The notes under the pieces are model-generated. The model searched no databases, was not told the origin of the DNA, and worked only from the letters and a program-made list of their open reading frames with translations. A stretch of 22,084 nucleotides of DNA from a virus, in IMG/VR virus record IMGVR_UViG_3300025674_000455, positions 1-22,084 of that record; one strand, 5' to 3'. Below are positions 274-22,084 of this stretch, one piece after another (positions within the stretch are counted from its first letter, which is position 1; each line of letters opens with the position of its first letter). A program made the position numbers and the translations under genes.

Positions 274-591
274 TTAAACAATTACCCAGTTGGCGCCTGA
301 CGCCACAGTCACCGTCGTGCCACTGGCAATCTCAATCGGACCAGCACTCATTCCGTTGACACCGCTCAGCGTGTAATCAGAACTGATTGACTGCGTATTA
401 GTGACAATCGCACCACCAGCTACCGCTGGAGCGCCACCGCCAATCTCAACAACAGCCTCCGTGCCATCGTCCTTCTTGGTGTACAGCTTGCCGTCGTTGG
501 TATTAACAGCAAGCTCACCAAGCGCGAGCTGAGCGGTCGTTGGAACCTTTCCGGCTGTCGCTGACCGCTTAATCCTGATTGTGTTTGCCAT
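274..591 (-). CDS. Small tail-fibre-like structural protein (chimeric modules)
   Basis: A 105-aa protein in two parts. Residues 1-52 start MANTIRIKRSATAGKVPTTA and include the phrase ALGELAVNTNDGKLY, an N-terminal module typical of cyanophage tail-fibre or adhesin proteins. Residues about 64-105 form a beta-rich tail with the pattern YT..GVNG.SAGPIEI.SGTTVTV.SG..WVIV. The N-terminal module resembles the start of the 420-aa protein at 640-1902. The C-terminal module resembles the end of the 200-aa protein at 5349-5951, so this gene looks like a fusion of two modules found in its neighbours. The likely role is a host-contact appendage or short fibre. The fibre identity is by resemblance only. 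Confidence 0.7.
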   Translation of the reverse strand: MANTIRIKRSATAGKVPTTAQLALGELAVNTNDGKLYTKKDDGTEAVVEIGGGAPAVAGGAIVTNTQSISSDYTLSGVNGMSAGPIEIASGTTVTVASGANWVIV

Positions 592-639
592 GTGGCTACC
601 CTCTAGCGCCTATGTAGGCAGGTAAAACGACGAAGCCCC

Positions 640-1902
640 TTAGAAGGTGCCGCCGTCAAACTCAATCCCGTCGATTGAGCCGCCAGTGATATTCACGTTG
701 CTGGAGTTTTGGGTGGCAATCGTCCCAAGACCCAACGTGGTTCGTGCAGCAGATGCACTCGCATCATCAACCAGGCTGCGACCAAAGCTGCTGAAATCAG
801 CAACGGCTGCCGTACCAGAACCCGTGAAATAAGGGACCTTGTTAGCGGCAGAAGTCAGACCAGCGAGGGCTGCCAGTTCAGCGTCATAAGCCTGAACGTC
901 GGTTCCGATTGCAAGACCAAGAGCAGTGCGAGCGCCAGATGCAGTGGTCGCTCCAGTACCACCATCCCCAACAGCAAGTGTGCCGGTAATGGCAGATGCA
1001 CCAAGGTCAACCGCAAGCTCGGTCGATTCAATAACCAAGCCGCCGTTGGCTTTCAGGTCAACGCTGACCGTCGAACCAGAAACATCAATACCGTCACCAG
1101 CAGTAGGTGCACCAGCGTCAGCGGCAATCGTGATGCTGCCACTGCCTTCGGTGATTGTGATGTTGTCACCAGCAGTCAGCGTCGCCTTAGTCAGACCGCC
1201 AGAGCTATTGCCGATCAGCAGCTGACCGCTTGTATAGCTGGTTTGACCAGTGCCGCCTTTGCTAACTGCAATGGTGCTAGCGGACCAAGTACCAGAGGTC
1301 AGGGTGCCAACGCTGGTCAGGCTCGAACCAGTAACACCAGAGCCAAGGCTGCTGCCGCTCAGGACAGAGGTGCCAGCAATCTTGAATTCTTTGCCGGAGG
1401 CGAGGTCAATGTGCTCGCTGCTGGTCCAGCTATCGGTGGAATCAACCCAGTTAAAAGTTTTGTCGGTTGTTCCCTTGAGGGTGATACCACCGCCATCAGC
1501 AGTTGCGTCACTAGGCGATGCAGTCGAACCTAGTTCGATGTTTTTATCATCGACCGAAAGCGTCGTGCTGTTAATGGTCGAGGTCGTGCCATTGACAACG
1601 AGGTTGCCGCCAACCGTGACATTCCCCGTGGTAGACAACGTGGAAATCGTTGCGCCACTAAAGTCAACCGTTCCAGTGAAAGTCTTGTTGCCACTGATGG
1701 TTTGAGTGCCGCTCAGCGTGGCAAACGCACCAGAGCCGCCGATGGCAAGGATGGTGGTTGCTGTGCCGCCAGCACCTCCAGTTCCCTCACCGTAATAAAG
1801 AACGTCATCAACCTCGTTGAACGCCAGTTCAGCGTTCTGCAGGCTAGACGGAGCACCAGCAGCGCCAGAAGCACGGCGTTTGATCCGAAGGGTGTTAGCC
1901 AT
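640..1902 (-). CDS. Putative tail fibre / receptor-contact protein
   Basis: A 420-aa protein, the longest of the accessory fibre cassette. Residues 1-55 are the [13 protein letters not shown]-type N-terminal module shared with the 105-aa neighbour. Then come Gly/Ser/Thr-rich beta repeats such as [25 protein letters not shown] and [20 protein letters not shown]. The phrase [11 protein letters not shown] and the [18 protein letters not shown] motif recur in tail-fibre proteins of many marine phages, including cyanomyoviruses by my recollection. The protein ends [11 protein letters not shown]; a DGG-x-F ending is also seen in the 89-aa protein directly upstream. The composition suits a trimeric beta-helical fibre shaft. 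No intramolecular chaperone domain is visible. Fibre role likely, receptor unknown. Confidence 0.8.
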
Positions 1903-1905
1903 GAC

Positions 1906-2175
1906 TTAGAAGTTGCCTCCGTCGGTGAGGGTTGTAGTCGTCCAGGTACTGTCCGCTTTATAGGTCGAAGTACCGGAGTCGTAGTAGATGACGCTCTTGT
2001 CTACTTTAGCCGTGTCTGCCAGGCTAAAACCACTGCCCGCATCGCCTTTTGCACCTTGCGGTCCAGCAGTTACCGCCTGAACAACAGAGGTTTGCTTTGA
2101 CTCAACTGTTGTGGTCTTGGATGACTCGGTGACCTCAACGCTGTTTTTCTGGAGCGTGACGTTGACGCTGGTCAT
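1906..2175 (-). CDS. Small fibre-associated protein with a short collagen-like stretch
   Basis: An 89-aa protein starting MTSVNVTLQKNSVEVTESSK. A Gly-X-Y run, GPQGAKGDAG, sits at about residues 38-47 and is followed by SVIYYDSGTSTYKADSTW and an ending LTDGGNF. Short collagen-like segments act as trimerising linkers in phage tail fibres, so an adaptor or fibre tip is plausible. It overlaps the preceding 112-aa gene by four bases (ATGA) and lies three bases before the 420-aa fibre gene. It therefore belongs to one translational unit and may physically link those two. The function is inferred from composition and position. Confidence 0.65.
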   Translation of the reverse strand: MTSVNVTLQKNSVEVTESSKTTTVESKQTSVVQAVTAGPQGAKGDAGSGFSLADTAKVDKSVIYYDSGTSTYKADSTWTTTTLTDGGNF

Positions 2176-2510
2176 CGCGTGTACCCCTGAGCGACAAAGA
2201 TGATGCCCTCCAGGTAATACTCCTTCAAACCGCTTGGATTGGTTAGCAGTACGTCGTAGTACAGCTCATCCGGGAAATCAACCGTGTCCTCATCGGACAG
2301 TGAAAGCGTCACCTTGCCGTTGGCGCGGTCGGTGTAAGCAACCGAAAAATCGGCGTACTTAGTGCTTCGCGCTTGGTTCCAAACCTGGCTGGCTACGGTC
2401 CAACTGGTGAGGTCAATCACCGCGTCATTGCTGTCCTTAAAGACAAGGACAAGCTCATGGTCCGCACCACGCTGGACCGTGAAGTTGTAGGTGCCAGGTG
2501 AGATCGCCAT
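2172..2510 (-). CDS. Baseplate-upper-protein-like small structural protein
   Basis: A 112-aa beta-rich protein with strands around YNFTVQRGADHELVLVFKD, DLTSWTVASQVW and GKVTLSLSDEDTVDFPD, ending YYLEGIIFVAQGYTR. The pattern 'Q.GADH...L.FKD....VIDLT.W...' is familiar from the N-terminal immunoglobulin-like domain of BppU-type baseplate proteins and from small proteins in cyanophage tail clusters. It probably forms a connector between the tail tip and fibre proteins. It follows a 40-base gap with no convincing promoter and overlaps the 89-aa gene downstream. Family assignment is by recall; confidence that it is a real gene is high. Confidence 0.7.
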   Translation of the reverse strand: MAISPGTYNFTVQRGADHELVLVFKDSNDAVIDLTSWTVASQVWNQARSTKYADFSVAYTDRANGKVTLSLSDEDTVDFPDELYYDVLLTNPSGLKEYYLEGIIFVAQGYTR

Positions 2511-2550
2511 AGGACCAGTTTAGTGCTAGGTCAAGGCTTGGAGACTGTTA

Positions 2551-2784
2551 TCAGATGCCTAAGGCAGCCTTGATTTCATCGGGCGAGGTTGCAGCATCAA
2601 TGTCATCCTGCATTGCCTCGTACTTGGTACGGATAGCAGCTCGTGCCGCTTCAGCCGCATCGGCATCAGCACCAGGGATCTGCTTCATGATCACCTCATC
2701 GTGAGGCTTGAACTCCTCATCACGGGCAGCACGGCGCTTGTCGTGACCGATTGCCTTGGCTTTGTCGAGGTTGATGTTGATCAT
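2551..2784 (-). CDS. Small helical hypothetical protein, possible fibre assembly chaperone
   Basis: A 77-aa, highly charged, all-helical protein starting MININLDKAKAIGHDKRRAA and ending ATSPDEIKAALGI. Similar 'INLDKA..I....RR.AR' proteins occur in many phages beside the partner encoded directly upstream (80 aa, 2781-3023). The two genes overlap by four bases (ATGA), which supports joint action. A small soluble helical protein between fibre genes suits an assembly chaperone or tail-fibre adaptor, but no catalytic motif is present and the function is not established. Confidence 0.6.
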   Translation of the reverse strand: MININLDKAKAIGHDKRRAARDEEFKPHDEVIMKQIPGADADAAEAARAAIRTKYEAMQDDIDAATSPDEIKAALGI

Positions 2785-3023
2785 TGCTCAGCCTCCTGTT
2801 GTGCAAACCAAGATTGCCGTCCCATGCTAATTCCGGTGGGATTGGTGAAATCAGCCTCCCAAGCATTGCGGAAAGTACGGTCAGCAGGAACTGCGTCGTC
2901 TTCGACGATTAGGTAAGGCGTACCAGCAGGGATGCATTTGTGGCAAAGATCTTCAACGGGCGTTGCGCCGGTTGGGTGGATGACGGATAGACCGCCTTCG
3001 GAGTTTTGGAAAAGGATTTTCAT
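2781..3023 (-). CDS. Small conserved phage protein of the tail-fibre region
   Basis: An 80-aa protein starting MKILFQNSEGGLSVIHPTGA. A CHKC pair sits at about residues 28-31, followed by IPAGTPYLIVEDDAVPADRTFRNAW. The 'P.G..Y.IV.D...P.DR.FRNAWE' pattern is a recurrent small protein in phage tail regions, usually followed by a helical protein like the 77-aa gene here. The two Cys with an intervening His could bind a metal, but nothing else supports that. It is translationally coupled to the next gene by an ATGA overlap. Function unknown; real gene very likely. Confidence 0.7.
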   Translation of the reverse strand: MKILFQNSEGGLSVIHPTGATPVEDLCHKCIPAGTPYLIVEDDAVPADRTFRNAWEADFTNPTGISMGRQSWFAQQEAEQ

Positions 3024-3032
3024 AACATTGCC

Positions 3033-3497
3033 TCAACGGAAGATAATAACGCTCACAACAGACCTGTTAACCAACGCATCAGAAGAACTGTATGTTCTTA
3101 TACTTACGCTACCAACACCGTATTCTCTTGTAACGATAGTTCCTAGTGTGGTGCCATATGATACAGCGACGGCATAATCGTCATCTGGCATATCATTTGT
3201 AAAGTTTACTGTGTAATCACCAGTACCGTTATCTGTTACTGCATCCATATTCCCATTCGCCCGTCCGGTACCGATGGTTGCAGCAGTGCCGTCGAAGTTG
3301 ATCCACGCCCTACAGCCGTAAGCCGTAGCAACACTGCCGTAGCCGGAGTTGAACTGAAGCGTTCCAGCGATTGACTGGTTACCAGTACCACTGACGGTCA
3401 GATTGCCAGTAACAGTTGCATTGGCAGAGCTGTCTAGAACGATGTTGTTACTGCCGGAACTAGCGTGTTTGAGATTGGTCGCAGATAGCGTGCTCAT
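3033..3497 (-). CDS. Short tail-fibre-like protein with exchangeable C-terminus
   Basis: A 154-aa protein. The first ~65 residues (MSTLSATNLKHASSGSNNIV, then ANATVTGNLTVSGTGNQSIAG) are the fibre-type 'T.NLKHASS...NIVLD' adaptor found at the N-terminus of many cyanophage fibres. The rest (GYGSVATAYGCRAWINFDG, NGNMDAVTDNGTGDYTVNFT, MPDDDYAVAVSYGT) is a beta-rich domain of a type often found at fibre tips. By hand count the N-terminal coding part is about 54% GC over 3301-3420, and the C-terminal part about 43% over 3061-3180. That fits a domain swapped in from elsewhere. It probably contributes to receptor binding; no ligand can be named. Confidence 0.75.
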   Translation of the reverse strand: MSTLSATNLKHASSGSNNIVLDSSANATVTGNLTVSGTGNQSIAGTLQFNSGYGSVATAYGCRAWINFDGTAATIGTGRANGNMDAVTDNGTGDYTVNFTNDMPDDDYAVAVSYGTTLGTIVTREYGVGSVSIRTYSSSDALVNRSVVSVIIFR

Positions 3498-3500
3498 GGG

Positions 3501-3788
3501 TTAGACCTCCGGCTTGGTGGGGAACACGGGGTTAGCCGGATCCACGGTATTAGCCGGTAGATCGCGGAGTGCTTGGCGATAATCCCGCATCTCGTCCGTC
3601 AGGGTTGAATCAGACAGAGCGAGGTAGTCGGTTTCGGCAAGGAGTTGGTCGCGCTGACGACGCAGCTCCTTCATCTGTTCTACGGGGAGAACGTCGCGTT
3701 CGTAGGCTTCGCGTTCTGCGATTTCTTCAGCGCTAAACGGAATGATCGTTTCTTCGCCGGTTTGTAAATTAACAATTTTATGTTCCAT
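3501..3788 (-). CDS. Tail assembly chaperone-like protein
   Basis: A 95-aa protein starting MEHKIVNLQTGEETIIPFSA. It has a helical centre (EREAYERDVLPVEQMKELRR) and the sequence RDQLLAETDYLALSDSTLTD, ending NPVFPTKPEV. The 'R.RD.LL.ETD..ALSD.TLT.E...YRQALRD...' signature is that of the small phage tail-assembly chaperone family (Pfam Phage_tail_APC type) that accompanies fibre genes. I prefer the ATG at 3788 over a TTG six bases upstream, because the ATG forms the TGATCATG junction used at four other gene boundaries here. It probably helps fold or attach the neighbouring fibre. Confidence 0.75.
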   Translation of the reverse strand: MEHKIVNLQTGEETIIPFSAEEIAEREAYERDVLPVEQMKELRRQRDQLLAETDYLALSDSTLTDEMRDYRQALRDLPANTVDPANPVFPTKPEV

Positions 3789-3790
3789 GA

Positions 3791-4432
3791 TCAATCCTGA
3801 GTAAGGTAATCGACGCGGATTTGTCCGCCGTCAAAGGTTGATCCGCTGCCCCATTGAACCCTGTCTAACGTGCCGCCAAGCTGGACTCTGCCTCCAAAAA
3901 TTGAATTTCCATCATTAAACGAACTATGCATTTGCGCTGTAACTACATAATCGCCAGTGTCAATATTTGTAATCAAAATGTGACCGCTAAAACTATGAGT
4001 AGCGGCTGTAAGAGTAGTAATGTTAAATGAAGTTACTGGATCACTCGCCGCTACTGAAGTGCCGCCAAAGATAGCAGCAGTAGATCCGGAATAATTTGAG
4101 GTAGCCGGAGTGCCTCCTGCTCCTAATCTCAGAAATTGATTAGATGTTCCGCTGAGGCTTGAGTCTTGGATAGTCACTAAAACCTGGACCGCATTACTAG
4201 GAATCCCGGTAATGGTTACATCCGCACCAGTTAGAGCAGTAAGTGTCCCTGTGACCCAAGTCGCCCCAGGTGCTGCCCAACTCAGCGCACCAGAGCCGTC
4301 GGTCTGCAGGTATTGACCGCTATCCCCATCGTTGACGGGTAGGGTCAGCACTACATCAGCGCCACTGGTCGTGTCCGCTGGTGCGTTCAGCTCAACCGAG
4401 CCGCTACTGCTGCCGTTTAGCTTGACTCCCAT
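3791..4432 (-). CDS. Tail-fibre-like protein with AT-rich C-terminal domain
   Basis: A 213-aa protein. Residues 1-60 (MGVKLNGSSSGSVELNAPAD, then TTSGADVVLTLPVNDGDSGQ and LQTDGSGALSWAAPG) form the fibre-linker module 'P.NDG..GQ.L.TDGSG.L.W' seen in many marine phage fibres. The remaining ~150 residues are a beta-sandwich-like domain rich in Thr, Ser, Ile and Gly. By hand count, the N-terminal coding part is 63% GC (4261-4380) and the C-terminal part 36% GC (3901-4020). This contrast within one gene suggests acquisition of a receptor-binding tip. The start overlaps the upstream stop (TGATG). Confidence 0.75.
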   Translation of the reverse strand: MGVKLNGSSSGSVELNAPADTTSGADVVLTLPVNDGDSGQYLQTDGSGALSWAAPGATWVTGTLTALTGADVTITGIPSNAVQVLVTIQDSSLSGTSNQFLRLGAGGTPATSNYSGSTAAIFGGTSVAASDPVTSFNITTLTAATHSFSGHILITNIDTGDYVVTAQMHSSFNDGNSIFGGRVQLGGTLDRVQWGSGSTFDGGQIRVDYLTQD

Positions 4433-4761
4433 CAGCTTGCCTCCTTGGGATACTTAGCCTTCACAGCAGCACAAGCGGCGTAATACTCGTCCAGCTTAGT
4501 GCTATCGCCGGTTGAGTTCCAGTACAAGGCGTCAGCTAGTTCAACCATGCTGGGATATTCCGGTGCGCGTTGGCGCTGGTACTCAGTGGCGGCTTGCTCA
4601 GCAAGGTGTTCTTGCCAAGCTGCTTCAAGTTCAGCCTCTGTTGGCTGTGGGTCACCGCCAATCCAACGCACAATGTGGTTGGGTGCATGAGTTTGATTAA
4701 GGCTCAGGATCTCAGGCTTTACGCCGAGACGATTAAGGCAAATTGCGACATCCATGATCAT
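4432..4761 (-). CDS. XkdW-like tail-fibre-associated small protein
   Basis: A 109-aa protein. The N-terminal half is predicted alpha/beta (DVAICLNRLGVKPEILSLNQ, then HIVRWIGGDPQPTEAELEAA). The C-terminal part, YPSMVELADALYWNSTGDST followed by KLDEYYAACAAVKAKYPK, carries the 'YPS...L.DALYW...GD..K.DEYY.AC..VK.KYPK' signature of small phage proteins near fibre genes, related to XkdW. It is probably an assembly chaperone or fibre adaptor. Two in-frame ATGs exist, at 4761 (ATGA overlap with the upstream stop) and 4755 (TGATCATG junction). The second would give 107 aa and matches other junctions in the window. Confidence 0.75.
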   Translation of the reverse strand: MIMDVAICLNRLGVKPEILSLNQTHAPNHIVRWIGGDPQPTEAELEAAWQEHLAEQAATEYQRQRAPEYPSMVELADALYWNSTGDSTKLDEYYAACAAVKAKYPKEAS

Positions 4762-5345
4762 GCCTCTTTGTAGATTTCGACTAAGACGTAGACCTCATCG
4801 CCTCCCCCGGTTGCAGCGTTGCTTTTTCCGAACCCATTAGTGGCCTGAGATTGGTTGGTATTCATCTGAATCTCATACGCAGTTGAGCCTGTTGGAGCTA
4901 CTCTTGCTGATCCAATGGAGTTAAGGGTGCCGTTGTAGGTGCTGGTAGCTACTCCGGTAATTCCGTTTTGAATTGCTGTTGTATTGGTTGCATCATATAG
5001 TCGAGCAGTTGCACCACTTGTGGAATATGCCATAGCCGTCCATTTAATCAAATAACTCCCTGCACCAAGCGTAAATTGATTACTGCTAAGAGTGACAATT
5101 CCGTCGGGATCAGCAACTTCTGTATTAAGTGTTCGTGTTGTCCATGTGTCTTGAACACTGCTTCCGCCATCAGTGCCGTCAGATTCAACTTGCGCCAGGA
5201 TTGCGTAGCTGACAAAAGTATTCGTGCCAATCTTTGCGGCAGTAACTGCACTGGTCGCCAGCATGTCGGTGTCAACGATGCCGTCAGGCAAGCCACCGAC
5301 TGATACCCCTGTAAGCGTTCCGTCGCCTGAAATGGAAATTGGCAT
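4758..5345 (-). CDS. Tail-fibre-like structural protein
   Basis: A 195-aa protein. Residues 1-45 (MPISISGDGTLTGVSVGGLP, then DGIVDTDMLATSAVTAAKIG) form a common N-terminal fibre module ending in the 'D..ML...AVTA.KIG' helix-like phrase that recurs in marine phage fibres. The remainder is a Thr/Ser/Gly-rich beta domain (ILAQVESDGTDGGSSVQDTW, NQFTLGAGSYLIKWTAMAYS, YEIQMNTNQSQATNGFGKSN, EVYVLVEIYKEA) resembling C1q/TNF-like jelly-roll tips. Hand-counted GC falls from about 55% at the 5' end (5221-5340) to about 47% over 4861-5040. It is the second gene after the central fibre and probably a receptor-contact protein. Confidence 0.75.
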   Translation of the reverse strand: MPISISGDGTLTGVSVGGLPDGIVDTDMLATSAVTAAKIGTNTFVSYAILAQVESDGTDGGSSVQDTWTTRTLNTEVADPDGIVTLSSNQFTLGAGSYLIKWTAMAYSTSGATARLYDATNTTAIQNGITGVATSTYNGTLNSIGSARVAPTGSTAYEIQMNTNQSQATNGFGKSNAATGGGDEVYVLVEIYKEA

Positions 5346-5348
5346 GGA

Positions 5349-5951
5349 TCAGACCACCGTCCAAGTTTCGCCGTCACCGATAGTAACGGTCACGCCTGCG
5401 TTGATTGTAATCGGTCCGAACGAACCGGCATTCTGTCCGTCAGTGATCGTGTAATCCGTGGTCACCGTTTGACCGTTTTCCCAAAACACCTTATCCGATC
5501 CACCGCCACCCGCTCCAGCGCCGCCAATCTCGTCCCATGCGCCGTTGACATAACCCTCAAAACGGTTGTCCGTCGTGGAGTACCGCAGCATCCCGTTGCT
5601 AGGAGTGCCAGGACGTTGCGCTTCCGTACCAGCAGCAACATCAATGGCACCCGTGCCGGTCATGTTGATGTTCCCGGCAAAACTCGCAGTGCCGGTGAAA
5701 CTCGGGGACGCCAGCGTTGCCAGCGCAAAGTTGGTGGCGCTGTAATCGCCCACAACGACCCATCCATCGTTGGAAGAGTTCCTCAGCTTGATCTGAGTGG
5801 TGTTGGTGTCAATCCACCACTGGAACGCATAAGTCGTCGCAGGCTCGGTGCTGCTGCTGTTATTGCTGACAATCGCCGCTAAGGCGTTATTTAAATCTTG
5901 ACGGACAGCCGAGCCCGTGCCATTACTAATTACATAGTCGTGAGTTGCCAC
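5349..5951 (-). CDS. Tail-tip fibre protein with C-terminal GPI..G.TVTV module
   Basis: A 200-aa protein starting MATHDYVISNGTGSAVRQDL. The first ~80 residues (NNALAAIVSNNSSSTEPATT, FQWWIDTNTTQIKLRNSSND, GWVVVG) form a widespread fibre N-terminal domain that anchors to the tail tip. Then come FTGTASFAGNINMTGTGAID and a 'RPGTPSNGMLRYSTTDNRFE' phrase typical of fibre shafts. The last ~45 residues (NGQTVTTDYTITDGQNAGSF, GPITINAGVTVTIGDGETWT) repeat the C-terminal module of the 105-aa protein at 274-591. Its position directly after gpJ is the classical place for a side-fibre adaptor. Receptor unknown. Confidence 0.8.
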   Translation of the reverse strand: MATHDYVISNGTGSAVRQDLNNALAAIVSNNSSSTEPATTYAFQWWIDTNTTQIKLRNSSNDGWVVVGDYSATNFALATLASPSFTGTASFAGNINMTGTGAIDVAAGTEAQRPGTPSNGMLRYSTTDNRFEGYVNGAWDEIGGAGAGGGGSDKVFWENGQTVTTDYTITDGQNAGSFGPITINAGVTVTIGDGETWTVV

Positions 5952-5979: not shown

Positions 5980-8900
5980 TTAGCCCGCCTTGCCATAGCC
6001 AACCACACTCCAGTTGAAGTTACGGTCGATCGCCGTATCTGACGAGTTGTAGAAGGTCACGTCAAAGCCCGTCGCAGACACGTTTTCCACCGTGAAGTAG
6101 TCGCCGCTCTGCATGTTCTGGGCTGTAATCCCAACAGCAGGCAAATTGCTGTCGCTACCAAGCAGGCTTGCCGTACCAACGAAAAACGCATTGCCGAACG
6201 TGATCGTCTTGGTGCTGGTGCCGCTTGCCACTGCAGTGCTGCTTTGTTCTTGACGACGGGCAAACTGCGCCTTGTACCCCAGCTCGTCGATCAAAATGTT
6301 TTGCGCGATGTTCTTTGATTCCAGCTCTGCCTTGAACTGGAATGCCCGCGCCTTAAACGTTCCACTCAAAAACTCCTGCCAATCGCCCCAAGTCGGAGAG
6401 GAATCAGGATCGTCGTCGGTTTTACGCAAATAGAGCTTGGCGTTGACCTGATCAATAATGTCGCCGTCGAAATTGTCCCAAGCATCCATCAGCTCAGTGC
6501 GAGCGTCCATGGTGTCGTTAGGGTAAAAACCGCGAGTAACGAACCGGCGTTCCAAGTCCAAGGAGAACACATTTTCTAGATCTAAAACGTTGGTGAACTC
6601 GTAAGTGCCGCTAGTAACAATGTTTCCCATAAAGTCAAACGACGGGAGATCATCAATATCCGCCACGTCGTCAAGCTCGTCAGCACCGTCAAGCGTCAAG
6701 GCGTCATAGCTTTCGTCGTAGAAACAATCGGTCTTGTCGCCTTGGAACGGCGGCACATCCTGATCCTCCCGGCGATCAGATAGCAGCAGCTTGCCCAGTG
6801 CATCAGGCAAGTCGATGATCACGCTGGTTTCATTGGTGCTAAGCCGCCCGCCGTCATCAGCAAACTTCACCAGCACCTCGCCTTCAATCAGCGGGATTTT
6901 TACGCTGGTCGCTGAACCAGCAACAGCTGGAACCAAATCAACCGAGTTCGACCATGCTCCACTGCCGTCAGTCAGGTTGGTGTGACGGATATAAACCTTG
7001 CCGCCGTTTTTAACGTCGATCTCAGTTGACTCGTCCCAGCTAAGGGTGCCTTCCTTGTCGCTGGTTGCCTCAAACTTCAGGTTTTGAACCTGTTGCGGTA
7101 CAGCAGTTTTGCCGACTGCGTTAAACGTCAGCGACGTGAAGTTGCTGGACTGACGCCCCAGTGCATTGATGCTGTAAATCTCGATGTCATAGGTGCCATC
7201 AGTGGTGTCCAGGATTTCAACTTCTGGCTTGATGACGGTTTGGCTATCCCAGTTGTCGTCACTCCGGCGATAACGAACCTTGTACTCAGGGATGCCCTTG
7301 ATCGCACTCCAGCTGACTTTGATCTTGACCTTTGCCTTGTCGTTGCTTGCGTAAAACAGCTCCTCCGCTTTGGCATTGCTTGGCGGATCTGGGATCGAAT
7401 TGAGGTTGCTGATGCTGCGTGTAGACAGCTTGGTGCCATCCTCCACAAAGTCATATTTGCTGCTGTTGTAAGTCAGCGCTGTGATCGCGTAAAGGTTGCC
7501 GTCTTTCTCCTGTACCGTCAGCACCCGGTATTGCTGCGTTTGGATCGAATCTGTTTGCACGATCCAGACACTGTTGGCATTTGGTGCAGATGAAAATGCC
7601 GTTGCAACTGAAATTTGATTGCCGCTGACACCAGAAATGCTCTTGGTTTCCAGCGTTCCATCCGACAGCAACACCGACAATGTGGCGTCAGTGCTGGGAA
7701 TGCCGGTGGCATCATCCACCGTGATCACCTCAGTGGTTGCACTACGGATCCGACCGCCATACCGGACACCAGCGCGAACTGGATCTTGGATGTCGATGAC
7801 TGCGCCGGGACGCACCAGTACACCTGCATCAATCGACGCGGTGAAGCTCACAACTTGAGTCTCGAACTGCTCGGCGTACAAAATCCATTTGCCGAGTCGG
7901 TACGCCTGACCGCGTGAAGTACAAGCAAACGCTTTGACCTGCGTGACGACCCAGCCATACTTTTCGATGGCGTCGCGGTCTTCAATCAGCTCGTAGTTTT
8001 GCTCCCTCGTTTCCAGGTCCAGGTAGCTGACAACGGCAACGGTGTGACGGGTTTTTAGGTCAGAGCCCGCATAGCTAAAGCCAGGCTCCAGCACATTGGA
8101 GCGGTTGAACAGGTAGGTCGAATCAGTCGGTTTGTCCTGCGTCAGCGTCAACGTGCCAGTGGACCAGTACGGCTGGGTCCGCATGACCGAGCACAGGTCG
8201 TTGACCAGCTTGTACGCCTCGTATTGGTTTTGAATTAGTGCGTTGCAACTAAACCTGGCTTCCTGTCCGCCAAAGCCGTCATCAACCAGCTGGTTTGCGT
8301 ACTGTGACGCTGAATAGAAAGCAAATCGGTCGAGTTGTGCTTCAGCAACGTGATCACCAAAGCCGTAGCGCTTGTTGGTGAGCAAGTCGTACAAAATCCA
8401 CGCCGGGCACGTTGTCCACTGAGCAGCGCCAAACGTTCCAGTCCATGTGCCGCTATAAATCAGCCTGCCGGTGTCTGAATCGACGGTGGCGTTATTTGGG
8501 ATCTTGACCTTGATGCCACGGATCCGATAGGACCTAGCAGGAATGTTGGTAAATTGCTCAGCCTGAAAACGCAAGCCAACAAGTGCGCTGTTCGGATAGC
8601 GCAGCTTTTCTTCAATGATCTCGGTATAAGTTGCCCAGAACAAAGGACGAACGTCGGTGTCGCTACTATCCGGCGAGGTGCGCTGAATCCTGATGTCAAC
8701 AGGGAAGTCGCCGTCTAACTCAACCAGATAATCGCGCTCATACTTGTCAGCTGTACGCCCCTTGATCGTCGGTGTTTTGGCGTCGGTATAGCCACCGCCG
8801 TTGTATTGAACTTGGATCTTGAACGCGACTGACGTACCAAGAACATCACCTTGGTCCGTGACCCGTTCCATCCGGGGGATGGCAATCGTTACGCGAACTG

Positions 8901-9387
8901 AATCAACGTTGGTGTCCGTAATTTGCCGAACAACAGGCGTCGCCTGCTTGACCTCAGTATTTACAGACTTGACATCTTCTGTTGCGCCAAAGCTCGCATT
9001 GTTGATATGCGTTTGCGCGTTAGTGCCATAGCGCGGCGTGACAGTAACGCCCTTAAAGTTGTAATCCGAATTGCTTAGGTCGGTGACATCCGCACCAGAG
9101 CGGAGAACTGGTGTATCAGTAAGAAAAACGTCTTTTAGTAGCGCCTTGTTGTAGTTGTCTGTTCCGCGCTCATAGTCCCTAGCAGAAGGGAAGCCTTCAA
9201 TCTCTCCTTCGCTTAGCAGATCAAGGATGTTGCCAAATGCCGCTGATGCCAAATTGTCCTTGGCGCGGGTTGGCGTATAAGTCGCTGGTCCAGCCGATTG
9301 GACTTGTACCGTTTGCTGGACAACGGTCTGACCACCACCGCCACCACCACCGGCACCAATGATCTGCTTGGGTTTCTTCTTAGCCAT
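5980..9387 (-). CDS. J: Central tail fibre / host-specificity tip protein (lambda gpJ-like)
   Basis: A 1135-aa protein, almost the length of lambda gpJ. The N-terminus has a Gly run (GAGGGGGGGQTVVQQ) and then the phrase ASAAFGNILDLLSEGEIEGF, diagnostic of the J family. A phage-tail hub domain with QVQYNGGGYTDAKTPTIKGR and WTTCPAWILYDLLTNKRYGF fills roughly residues 60-550. Two fibronectin-III-like domains follow at about 665-860 (PDPPSNAKAEELFYAS onward), then a C-terminal region with CFYDESYDALTLDGADELDD and ending in a beta tip. It forms the tail tip and central fibre and triggers host contact. It lies after gpI with the TGATCATG junction, completing the M-L-K-I-J order. Confidence 0.95.
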   Translation of the reverse strand: MAKKKPKQIIGAGGGGGGGQTVVQQTVQVQSAGPATYTPTRAKDNLASAAFGNILDLLSEGEIEGFPSARDYERGTDNYNKALLKDVFLTDTPVLRSGADVTDLSNSDYNFKGVTVTPRYGTNAQTHINNASFGATEDVKSVNTEVKQATPVVRQITDTNVDSVRVTIAIPRMERVTDQGDVLGTSVAFKIQVQYNGGGYTDAKTPTIKGRTADKYERDYLVELDGDFPVDIRIQRTSPDSSDTDVRPLFWATYTEIIEEKLRYPNSALVGLRFQAEQFTNIPARSYRIRGIKVKIPNNATVDSDTGRLIYSGTWTGTFGAAQWTTCPAWILYDLLTNKRYGFGDHVAEAQLDRFAFYSASQYANQLVDDGFGGQEARFSCNALIQNQYEAYKLVNDLCSVMRTQPYWSTGTLTLTQDKPTDSTYLFNRSNVLEPGFSYAGSDLKTRHTVAVVSYLDLETREQNYELIEDRDAIEKYGWVVTQVKAFACTSRGQAYRLGKWILYAEQFETQVVSFTASIDAGVLVRPGAVIDIQDPVRAGVRYGGRIRSATTEVITVDDATGIPSTDATLSVLLSDGTLETKSISGVSGNQISVATAFSSAPNANSVWIVQTDSIQTQQYRVLTVQEKDGNLYAITALTYNSSKYDFVEDGTKLSTRSISNLNSIPDPPSNAKAEELFYASNDKAKVKIKVSWSAIKGIPEYKVRYRRSDDNWDSQTVIKPEVEILDTTDGTYDIEIYSINALGRQSSNFTSLTFNAVGKTAVPQQVQNLKFEATSDKEGTLSWDESTEIDVKNGGKVYIRHTNLTDGSGAWSNSVDLVPAVAGSATSVKIPLIEGEVLVKFADDGGRLSTNETSVIIDLPDALGKLLLSDRREDQDVPPFQGDKTDCFYDESYDALTLDGADELDDVADIDDLPSFDFMGNIVTSGTYEFTNVLDLENVFSLDLERRFVTRGFYPNDTMDARTELMDAWDNFDGDIIDQVNAKLYLRKTDDDPDSSPTWGDWQEFLSGTFKARAFQFKAELESKNIAQNILIDELGYKAQFARRQEQSSTAVASGTSTKTITFGNAFFVGTASLLGSDSNLPAVGITAQNMQSGDYFTVENVSATGFDVTFYNSSDTAIDRNFNWSVVGYGKAG

Positions 9388-20516: not shown

Positions 20517-20711
20517 CTAATCAGCGAAATATTTGTCGATCAACTCGTAATCGGCCTGGCCGCCCGAGGCGACCTTGAGCACTTCGACCAGACTTTTTAT
20601 CTGCTGCCTTTCAACCCCGCGGGCTTCGTCATAGACAGCCCGCAATCTCCTTGGGACAGTGCGGTCCTCAGGCCAGCGTCCAGCCAAATCAACTGCCTCT
20701 CTAGGTGTCAT
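20517..20711 (-). CDS. 64-aa hypothetical protein coupled to the MuF-peptidase gene
   Basis: A helical, charged 64-aa protein starting MTPREAVDLAGRWPEDRTVP, then RRLRAVYDEARGVERQQIKS and LVEVLKVASGGQADYELIDK. Its start overlaps the stop of the MuF-metallopeptidase gene by four bases (ATGA), so the two are made together. I do not recognise the family. In polymorphic toxin loci a small gene directly after the toxin is often its immunity protein. That is a possibility here, but an unrelated head-assembly role is equally open since several small genes lie in this region. Confidence 0.65.
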   Translation of the reverse strand: MTPREAVDLAGRWPEDRTVPRRLRAVYDEARGVERQQIKSLVEVLKVASGGQADYELIDKYFAD

Positions 20712-22084
20712 TTCAAAGCCTCTTCCATAGCGTCATCTACCCATTGGTAAAGCCGCGGGTGACTGGCCTTAAGGCCCTTGGGGTTCAAAACATAATGCAC
20801 AAAGGCTTCGGCAAATTGCTCGAACTCGTTTGAGTGAGCGTACTGCGAAACAAATTTCTCGCCACCCAACCCCTTGTACTTATTGGCCAGCTTGGTGCCG
20901 GCCAATCCGCGGAAGTGGACTTGGTGCCCGACTTCGTGGATTGTTGTTGATAGCCATTGGTCGGGGTCAAGAGCACCCCCGCCGCCTAATCCGCTTGCGT
21001 TCCAAGACGGTTTTGGAGCCACCGTCCCCGCTTTGTATTCCTTGTAATAGTTGATGTAGGCGTTCTGTTGCTTGAGGGAATCCTCGGCGCTGGCCACAAG
21101 ACGCTTGACCCGCTTGCTGTTGAGCGTTGTTGAGTTTGGCGTCATCGCTGCATTGATGATTCCACTGCTGCGTGTGGTGTAGCCAGCTGCCCCGCCAGCC
21201 TTGCCCATAACGTGCTTCAACTCGCCGTAGTTGCCGTCTTCCAAGGCCTTGAGAATGCTCTTAGCGCCGCTTAATGCGCCTGGGTTGTTGCCCTGTTTCT
21301 CCAAAGCCTCGACAGCTTTGCGCTGAGCTTCGAGCAAGGCTTGGTTGCCCTTAAACCGATCTGCGTTGCTGAATTTTTCAGGGATCGAGGGATGAAGCAC
21401 AACATTTTGCTTCTCAATAAATCGCCGCATCTTGCGAGCGTTGGCCCCGACTTCCCCGTCAACCTCTTCCAGCAAGCTAAAGCTGTCCTCAAACATTTTC
21501 GCCGTGCCGCCTTGCTTGGCAAAAACCAGCTGGTTTTGAGGCCCTGGGGCGAGCACTCGATCAGCAAGTGAAACTTTTGGCGCTGCAGCAGGCTTGGGCT
21601 TTGCTTTCGGGAAGGTCTCGGTAGTGGCCAGGCCAGACTTCTTCTTGGCCTCAGCCACCAGACCCACAAAGTCAGAATTTGCCGGGACGCCTTTTTCGAC
21701 CATCGCCTCGATCCGCTTCTTATCGCTCTTCAGCGACGGATCCTGCATCACCTGTTTGGCGATCTTCTCGTTCTTGGTCAGCGCCTTGGGCTTGGCCTTG
21801 ACCTTGGTCGTCGTGATCTTCTCAGGATCGCCATAGCGACGCTGCAGGTCAGCGATGCTCACCTCCGTGCCATCTTCACGAAGGAACTTCTTCATCGCCT
21901 TATCCGGCCCGTACTTGTCGGCCAAGCGGTTGAAATACTTGGCTTTCAGCCTTGCCGCTGGCGTATCCTTCCCGCCGCCAAAGGCCTTGGCCTGTGCCGC
22001 ACTCGCCTCGAACTTCTTGCCTGCAGGCCGTTGATCATGCAGCCACTTCCCGTAGCTAGTCCCCAATGGCACGCCGCCGGTAGC
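20708..22084 (-). CDS. MuF-like minor head protein with C-terminal zinc metallopeptidase domain (5' end outside window)
   Basis: The frame is open to the window edge: ATGG lies in frame before VPLGTSYGKW, and there is no stop, so the GTG at 22072 is probably internal. From that GTG, residues 1-85 (PLGTSYGKWLHDQRPAGKKF to IADLQRRYGD) resemble the end of MuF/SPP1 gp7 minor head proteins, whose 'G.TY..WL..QP' element closes the MuF domain. A Lys/Ala/Pro-rich linker fills 86-170. A new domain at about 180-454 carries HEVGH at 379-383 and SNEFEQFAEAFVHY at 414-427, giving two His and Glu422 (or Glu418) as zinc ligands of a gluzincin. MuF proteins can carry toxin domains injected with DNA; an alternative role is head maturation. 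Confidence 0.8.
   Translation of the reverse strand, partial: ATGGVPLGTSYGKWLHDQRPAGKKFEASAAQAKAFGGGKDTPAARLKAKYFNRLADKYGPDKAMKKFLREDGTEVSIADLQRRYGDPEKITTTKVKAKPKALTKNEKIAKQVMQDPSLKSDKKRIEAMVEKGVPANSDFVGLVAEAKKKSGLATTETFPKAKPKPAAAPKVSLADRVLAPGPQNQLVFAKQGGTAKMFEDSFSLLEEVDGEVGANARKMRRFIEKQNVVLHPSIPEKFSNADRFKGNQALLEAQRKAVEALEKQGNNPGALSGAKSILKALEDGNYGELKHVMGKAGGAAGYTTRSSGIINAAMTPNSTTLNSKRVKRLVASAEDSLKQQNAYINYYKEYKAGTVAPKPSWNASGLGGGGALDPDQWLSTTIHEVGHQVHFRGLAGTKLANKYKGLGGEKFVSQYAHSNEFEQFAEAFVHYVLNPKGLKASHPRLYQWVDDAMEEALK

What the first reader, a model, noticed from the sequence alone, without database searches (positions are those of the whole stretch)
274..5951. Shuffled fibre modules: the 105-aa protein combines parts of two neighbours
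The N-terminal MANT-IRIKR module is shared by 274-591 and 640-1902. The C-terminal 'YT.....N..S.GPI.I..G.TVTV..G..W.VV' module is shared by 274-591 and 5349-5951. The 105-aa protein is thus built of an anchor and a cap seen in larger fibres, and may act as a minimal or competing fibre.
Basis: seen in the sequence. Interest (0 to 1): 0.5.

Follow-up and report, generated by a model that had tools for sequence, protein, structure and literature searches.

The report
Joints that link phage fibre proteins
A tiny protein of a marine cyanobacterial virus looks like the shortest form of the end piece of its host-gripping fibre, probably plugged on by a short tail-and-socket joint that other viruses, including the textbook phage T4, also seem to use.

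Summary
In detail: the 105-aa protein (B) shares an N-terminal module with its upstream neighbour A (640-1902) and a C-terminal cap with 5349-5951, beyond chance. "Built from its neighbours" is not supported: A- and B-position modules fall largely in separate lineages, and B's cap is nearer L080's (30/44 identical) than its neighbour's (19/44).

Comparison gives a better reading. B ends a conserved fibre cassette. Genes just before an N-module gene mostly encode proteins ending GGx[F/Y]: 170 of 198 unique pairs versus 23 of 1161 other gene pairs, in 12 groups without detectable similarity. The window has this ending exactly twice, before its two N-modules. T4-like gp36 ends alike (DxGx[F/Y] in 7 of 8), and T4 gp36 binds the N-terminal region of gp37, which carries this module (review passages). 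Residue x mostly follows the recipient: N before A, T/S before B.

Best model: each C-terminal tail docks in the next subunit's N-module, and a cap ends the chain. B is a body-less gp37-position subunit; short forms are common (15 of 34). Docking is inferred, not shown.

The parts
274..591 (-). Protein B, 105 aa: body-less distal fibre subunit (N-module, linker, C-terminal cap, no tail)
433..591 (-). B-type N-module (residues 1-53), proposed socket and trimer-forming domain
   Evidence: PHROG gp37-like N-terminal matches; AF2 four strands, pLDDT blocks 87-95; position in tree
277..411 (-). C-terminal cap (residues 61-105), six short strands, proposed chain terminator
   Evidence: HMM; AF2; 0 of 84 unique cap ORFs followed within 450 bases by an N-module
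640..1902 (-). Protein A, 420 aa: connecting fibre, A-type N-module at its start and proposed docking tail DGGTF at its end
1762..1902 (-). A-type N-module of protein A (approximate end), proposed socket for the DGGNF tail of 1906-2175
640..657 (-). Codons for tail DGGTF plus stop; proposed plug for the N-module of B
   Evidence: one of only two GGx[FY]-stop matches on either strand of the window (narrower pattern)
1906..2175 (-). Adaptor, 89 aa, collagen-like stretch, ends TLTDGGNF
1906..1923 (-). Codons for tail DGGNF plus stop; proposed plug for the N-module of A
   Evidence: second of the two matches
2172..2510 (-). LtfC-like protein at the head of the cassette (phrog_1084; phrog_3304 'L-shaped tail fiber protein assembly'; Pfam LtfC match below cut-off)
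   Evidence: similarly annotated genes precede the adaptor in S-CAM9 and Sf-CH5
5349..5951 (-). 200-aa protein with a different N-terminus and the same kind of C-terminal cap; not followed by an N-module gene

Best explanation
The 105-aa protein is the terminal subunit (the gp37 position of T4) of a multi-protein fibre built in gene order: adaptor (1906-2175), A (640-1902), B (274-591). Each joint is a short C-terminal tail of one protein (here DGGNF, then DGGTF), which docks into the N-terminal module of the next. The N-module probably also trimerises the subunit. The fourth tail residue helps to specify which module type is accepted (N for A-type, T or S for B-type). B has no tail and ends in a beta-helix-like cap, so it closes the chain. 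In other phages the same slot holds proteins of up to about 1950 aa; here the body is missing. Shown: the modules, their order, the tails and their statistical pairing, and the x preference. Known for T4: gp36 binds the N-terminal region of gp37. Inferred: that the tail itself is the docking element, that subunits are trimers, and that the cap acts as a stop.
For: Tail GG.[FY] on the gene just upstream of an N-module gene versus other adjacent same-strand gene pairs: 136/150 vs 4/822 (loci found with B, plus the window), 99/107 vs 21/475 (loci found with A's N-module), 11/14 vs 1/66 (bacterial genomes), 9/18 vs 4/134 (named phages fetched by then); unique pairs 170/198 vs 23/1161. In loci chosen by the cap, 5 of 7. 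The 199 unique tail proteins, last 12 residues removed, fall into 12 components at blastp E 1e-3. All four Gly codons are used at both Gly positions. T4-like gp36 ends: 7 of 8 D[FY]G.[FY], the eighth DFGVV. Residue x: T/S in 6 of 94 A recipients and 83 of 89 B recipients. N-module genes followed by another N-module gene carry a tail in 119/122, otherwise in 41/176. No unique cap ORF precedes an N-module, 0/84. In 8 named genomes, 11 DGG.[FY]-stop matches were found in all, at ends of fibre-cassette genes read or annotated, 8 of them directly before an N-module gene. Seven cyanophage genomes lack an adjacent tail, yet 6 of 7 hold exactly one such match, each near the neck genes. T4 assembly order: PMC3004832 (passages).
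Against: No binding or structural test of any tail-module contact. Many loci are related, so counts are not independent; three contigs are in both main sets (L066/L178, L042/L181, L072/L163). One similarity component holds 174 of the 199 tail proteins and seven components are single proteins. Of 160 N-module genes with a tail, 119 are followed by an N-module gene; for 24 the next gene has none that was recognised, 19 of these in loci found with A; for 17 there is no next gene, or none within 400 bases. Donors without an N-module before B recipients have T/S in only 5 of 11. The informative B-type donors before A recipients (N in 4 of 4) are clear only in L188 and fair in L026; L051 and L122 are weak module matches. 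BPP-1 bbp9 before mtd ends LGGIA. S-PRM1 has no match. The lineage of the N-modules beside the neck genes of P-SSM2 and S-CAM9 is undecided, so they do not test the x rule. T4-like tails have F or Y where these have G.
Confidence: 0.68

Rival explanations
1. B sits on the end of A but is itself a functional receptor-binding tip, the cap being the recognition surface, rather than a mere plug.
For: Distal position as for gp37. The cap ends tail fibre proteins elsewhere, such as P-SSP7 gp17, where a tip would be expected.
Against: The cap is conserved across many phages and on many bodies, unlike what one expects of a variable receptor-binding tip. Other short B proteins end in quite different small segments.
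Confidence: 0.3
2. The DGGx[F/Y] ending is a trimer-locking or folding end of fibre proteins, inherited within one cassette, and has nothing to do with docking.
For: Most upstream tail proteins in the sample belong to one large similarity component (174 of 199), and synteny alone would produce co-occurrence. In 24 of 160 cases a tail-bearing N-module gene is followed by a gene without a recognised N-module.
Against: Eleven further components have the tail. In the window, 11 of the 13 genes from J to B that I listed lack it, and the two that have it precede the two N-modules. The x residue follows the recipient in the few cases with an unusual donor. T4-like gp36 shows a variant.
Confidence: 0.2
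3. B is a decayed remnant of a once longer distal fibre and does nothing.
For: The same slot holds proteins of up to about 1950 aa in relatives.
Against: 15 of 34 unique N-module proteins that follow an N-module protein, in loci chosen without regard to B, are 130 aa or shorter (two of the longer ones, L115 and L122, themselves end in a tail). Short forms have open frames and several different endings; two-module forms recur in distant loci, including a bacterial genome contig. The near relative L004 keeps the first 53 residues identical, with 154 of 159 bases identical.
Confidence: 0.1
4. One reading: an independent minimal fibre that competes with A and the 200-aa protein for the same attachment site.
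For: B shares an N-module family with A and a cap family with the 200-aa protein.
Against: A and B modules are largely separate lineages and mostly follow different tails. A's own tail is the type seen before B.
Confidence: 0.07

Closest known systems
T4 long tail fibre distal joint, gp36-gp37
   Same: gp37 begins with the same kind of N-module (phrog_1699 'long tail fiber protein distal subunit' matches B; gp37 letters). The gene before it encodes the connecting subunit, whose C-terminal end resembles the tail (DFGYY in T4; ILDFGTF, VIDFGTF and the like in relatives). gp36 binds the N-terminal region of gp37 (PMC3004832, passages).
   Different: gp37 has a long body and needle; B has none. 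T4-like tails have F or Y where the cyanophage tails have G. Neither gp36 nor the first 56 residues of gp37 has a sequence match in the PDB copy.
Mtd_N (PF18454), N-terminal domain of the BPP-1 major tropism determinant, and streptococcal phage hyaluronidase N-terminal domains
   Same: Weak sequence match (Mtd_N, E 0.022) and weak fold matches within residues 3-60 (Mtd Z 2.8-2.9, hyaluronidases Z 3.0-3.3).
   Different: Below the Pfam cut-off (15.1 against 26.3 bits). The gene before mtd does not end in the tail.
Collagen XV/XVIII trimerisation domains
   Same: Among the highest fold matches of the N-module in both models (Z 4.1-4.4 in the first, 3.4-4.1 in the second), which would fit a trimer-forming unit.
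P-SSP7 gp17 and other marine tail fibre proteins that end in the same cap
   Same: 71% identical to the cap at 5352-5498 and at the exact C-terminus.
   Different: gp17 has 716 residues and no N-module was found in it.

Membership tests
T4 gp37-type distal fibre subunits (phrog_1699 and kin) | N-terminal module homologous to that of gp37 | tested here: met
   phrog_1699 residues 5-79, E 1.2e-10; phrog_35830 and phrog_19966 also match
T4 gp37-type distal fibre subunits (phrog_1699 and kin) | Encoded directly after a connecting subunit with the C-terminal tail | tested here: met
   A ends EFDGGTF, 48 bases before B
T4 gp37-type distal fibre subunits (phrog_1699 and kin) | Long shaft and receptor-binding tip | tested here: not met
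   105 aa in all; only a linker and a cap follow the N-module
T4 gp37-type distal fibre subunits (phrog_1699 and kin) | Physical attachment to the connecting subunit | not testable with these tools
   No complex prediction or experiment available
Mtd_N (PF18454) | Score above Pfam's curated cut-off | tested here: not met
   15.1 bits against 26.3; 3 of 8 members of A1 match at E <= 1, best 0.00047
Mtd_N (PF18454) | Fold of the Mtd N-terminal domain | tested here: inconclusive
   VIA-align Z 2.8-2.9 over 43 residues
C-terminal cap family (named here; 0 Pfam families for the 200-aa protein at E <= 1) | Sits at the C-terminal end | tested here: met
   B's cap ends at the stop; 79 of 87 unique closed copies at 0 residues, the rest within 7

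The most novel reading that the evidence does not exclude
Tailed phages of several families, T4-like ones included, build multi-protein fibres with a common, exchangeable tail-and-socket joint. The last five residues of each subunit (about D-[G/F/Y]-G-x-[F/Y]-COOH) are an address read by the N-module of the next subunit, x helps to choose between socket types, and a C-terminal cap or another ending stops the chain. Fibre order, and partners encoded far apart in the genome, could then be read from sequence alone.
Probability: 0.45. Interest if true: 0.8.

Novelty: new variant of a known kind. Interest (0 to 1): 0.62.

Why it matters
How separate fibre proteins are joined end to end is poorly known. 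T4 gp36-gp37 is an old textbook joint, but neither gp36 nor the gp37 N-terminus matches any PDB chain in the copy searched. A short tail matched to a module would give a sequence-level rule for fibre order and for which proteins belong together. Searching for the tail alone already pointed to candidate partner proteins far from the fibre gene in six of seven cyanophage genomes. It also turns a puzzling 105-aa gene into an interpretable part, and the rule can be tested with truncation and binding assays on T4 or cyanophage proteins. I found no paper of the held library that describes such a pairing; the searches were those, of which I saw listings, plus passages of three papers.

Tried and rejected
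Chance similarity: rejected. Intragenomic shuffling from the two neighbours: not supported. Ribosome-binding or other DNA signal as the cause of the tail: not supported, since all four Gly codons occur at both positions and the gap to the next gene varies. Gene fusion as evidence for joining: none found; the two interior N-modules (L144, L172) look like start-call artefacts. A contact between the tail Asp and the second basic residue of the module: A recipients with KKR lack Asp (0 of 4, against 79 of 85 others), but B recipients with Q, N, S or T there still have Asp and the four may be related, so this is only a hint. Whole-genome search for the T4-like tail variant in the seven cyanophages: 2 of 7 had a match (one ends in TGG, no stop) and the reversed control matched in 4 of 7, so it is uninformative. 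In one search the reversed control matched once (Mosig). PDB sequence search for the 105-aa protein and for the cap: designed beta-propeller repeats, human CD276 and other weak or low-complexity hits, not taken as meaningful. Foldseek against PDB: no match with E <= 0.001; the cap was hardly tested by the fold search. The first structure model (8 sequences) had an unconfident C-terminal half. S-SM1 matched through the cap only, so it adds only pairs without an N-module. Two cyanophage structure papers, read in passages, did not bear on the joint. The nearest named phage by protein J, MED4-117, shows no N-module hit in its fetched stretch.
Full report
WHAT THE WINDOW IS. The window is a 22,084-base linear IMG/VR virus fragment. 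The genes discussed here lie on the minus strand: tail genes with a lambda-type protein J (5980-9387; phrog_31, E 3.6e-220), then a run of small genes, several of them fibre-like, ending with the 105-aa protein. The top-ranked named phage by J is Cyanophage MED4-117, 41.6% identity.

THE OBSERVATION. The 105-aa protein shares its N-terminal region with 640-1902 and its C-terminal region with 5349-5951 (39% and 47% identity, E 5.0e-6 and 1.8e-7 in the whole record). In 87 unique closed cap ORFs the cap is at or within 7 residues of the C-terminus (79 at exactly 0). An AlphaFold2 model built on 60 rows, including fragments, has mean pLDDT 85.5: four strands in the N-module, a weaker stretch (blocks 51-70 at 62-70) and six three-residue strands in the cap. 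pTM is 0.49, so the relative placement of the parts is not known, and only a monomer was modelled. That the phage matches are trimeric fibre parts is recalled, not from a call.

NOT MADE FROM ITS NEIGHBOURS. In a tree of 99 N-modules, 36 of 39 A-position modules and 1 B-position module form one lineage (100/92). The other three A-position modules lie among the B modules, and a group of eight B modules sits on the A side at 94/85. The tree is short of columns and 44 of 96 inner branches are open. Window A is closest to an A of another contig, and window B to a B of another contig. Over residues 62-105 B's cap is 30/44 identical to L080's and 19/44 to that of the 200-aa protein. So two older module families coexist in one cassette.

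A CONSERVED CASSETTE. In 72 of 82 loci (window included) the B gene directly follows another N-module gene, in most cases with the divergent A-type module. The complete B proteins there range from 72 to 1953 aa. In loci selected by A's N-module, which should not bias the length of B, 15 of 34 unique N-module proteins that follow an N-module protein are 130 aa or shorter. A short B is therefore ordinary. Limnohabitans phage DC31 has the same order with a 118-aa B.

THE TAIL. The A proteins end in DGGTF or close variants, and the protein before A usually ends in DGGNF or close variants. I called genes in the 191 loci and window then held and asked whether the gene directly before an N-module gene ends in GG.[FY]. 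It does in 136 of 150 (set 1 and window), 99 of 107 (set 2), 9 of 18 (named phages) and 11 of 14 (bacterial genomes). For other adjacent same-strand pairs the numbers are 4 of 822, 21 of 475, 4 of 134 and 1 of 66. After removing repeated pairs it is 170 of 198 against 23 of 1161. Sets 1 and 2 share three contigs. Many of the 28 misses are variants such as DCGSF, DAGTF, DGSTF and DRGTF. The 199 unique tail-bearing proteins, stripped of the last 12 residues, form 12 components at blastp E 1e-3, one of which holds 174 and seven of which are single proteins. In the window a GGx[FY] ending followed by a stop occurs exactly twice on either strand, at 640 and 1906, each directly before an N-module gene.

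LINK TO T4. gp37 begins with this module. In the 8 T4-like phages examined, gp36, the gene before gp37, ends QDFGYY (T4), LDFGTF, LDYGTF, IDFGEF, IDFGTY, IDFGTF, IDFGSY and IDFGVV. A review states that trimeric gp36 binds the N-terminal region of gp37 (PMC3004832, passages). No PDB chain in the copy searched matches gp36 or the first 56 residues of gp37.

AN ADDRESS RESIDUE. With recipients classified by lineage models, and tails of the form [DNEYFHTS][GFYACRS]G.[FY] only, residue x is T or S before 83 of 89 B recipients and before 6 of 94 A recipients, where N dominates. Much of this could be cassette inheritance: the A donors before B recipients (72) and donors without an N-module before A recipients (89) are the bulk. 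Cases with an unusual donor are the informative ones: a B-type donor before an A recipient carries N (4 of 4), before a B recipient T or S (6 of 6), and one A donor before an A recipient carries N. But of the four, only L188 is a clear B-type module and L026 a fair one; L051 and L122 are weak. Donors without an N-module before B recipients have T or S in 5 of 11.

EXCEPTIONS USED AS A TEST. Seven cyanophage genomes (six assigned to Kyanoviridae in their records; Sf-CH5 unassigned) have an N-module fibre with no tail gene beside it. Searching these whole genomes for D-G-G-x-[F/Y]-stop gave exactly one match in six of them and none in S-PRM1; the reversed-pattern control gave none. All six matches lie near the neck genes: small adaptor-like proteins of S-CAM9, Sf-CH5, S-T4 and ACG-2014f, a 443-aa protein in DSL-LC03, and in P-SSM2 an N-module protein that directly follows an adaptor ending INGGNF. 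The neck genes are annotated in four of the six; in S-T4 and DSL-LC03 I recognised the ORF by its resemblance to the annotated one of Sf-CH5. P-SSM2 and S-CAM9 have an N-module protein there (ending LDGGTF and IDCGTY), but models do not decide whether it is A- or B-type. The ends left free have x = T (P-SSM2, S-CAM9, S-T4), S (DSL-LC03), V (Sf-CH5) and F (ACG-2014f). That these proteins are the partners of the distant fibres is inference. In 8 other named genomes, 11 matches were found in 6 (T4 and Motura have none of this exact form); by their coordinates all 11 are ends of fibre-cassette genes, 8 of them directly before an N-module gene, two before another kind of start in Vibrio phages, one separated by a small gene in Mosig. 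BPP-1 mtd remains an exception.

TAIL OR CAP. N-module genes followed by another N-module gene have a tail in 119 of 122 cases, otherwise in 41 of 176. Of those 41, 17 have no next gene or none within 400 bases, and 24 are followed by a gene without a recognised N-module. None of 84 unique cap ORFs is followed within 450 bases by an N-module. A tail appears to mean continue, and a cap is one way to stop.

CONCLUSION. The 105-aa protein is best read as a very short form of the distal subunit of a jointed fibre, docked on A and ending the chain. Whether it touches the host receptor is open. The statistics are inflated by relatedness, and docking through the tail has not been shown physically.

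Noticed in passing
3501-3794 (-) and 4432-4761 (-): Small genes among the fibre genes match Phage_tail_APC (PF16778, E 2.9e-14) and XkdW (PF09636, E 5.7e-6): tail assembly-related proteins next to fibre genes.
   Followed up: no
20708-22072 (-): 454-aa protein with an HEVGH zinc-peptidase-like motif (motif recalled); the two Pfam matches at E <= 0.01 are both below the curated cut-offs. Possibly a head-associated protein with a peptidase domain.
   Followed up: no
L043, L050, L117, L158, L169 (C-termini of B proteins): Several short and longer B proteins end in a different small segment, DYG(A/S)L(V/T), some with a second DYG before it; a second possible kind of chain ending.
   Followed up: no
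L103-L105, L113, L121, L141, L148, L157 (B proteins of 68-75 aa): B proteins that are almost only an N-module plus about 20 residues ending in AM(Q/S)xF: even smaller than the window's 105-aa protein.
   Followed up: no
L004 against the window: Related contig (82.7% DNA identity over 2133 aligned bases of the fibre end): B's first 53 residues are identical, but A has another N-module subtype and the adaptor tail changes from TDGGNF to VFGGDF, a hint of joint change of tail and socket.
   Followed up: partly
L090, L091, L093 (Vibrio podophages): Four successive fibre genes; the first three end in NGG/DGG-x-F/Y. The second has a start without an N-module (MANYTPSTPNNF), which suggests another socket type.
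   Followed up: no
L115, L116, L120, L122, L127-L129, L138, L165: A proteins ending in a DGGx[F/Y] tail are followed by genes with other starts (for example MPEIYG, MxYNEGVTYxEPYFQYNG), possibly further socket types or unrelated genes.
   Followed up: no
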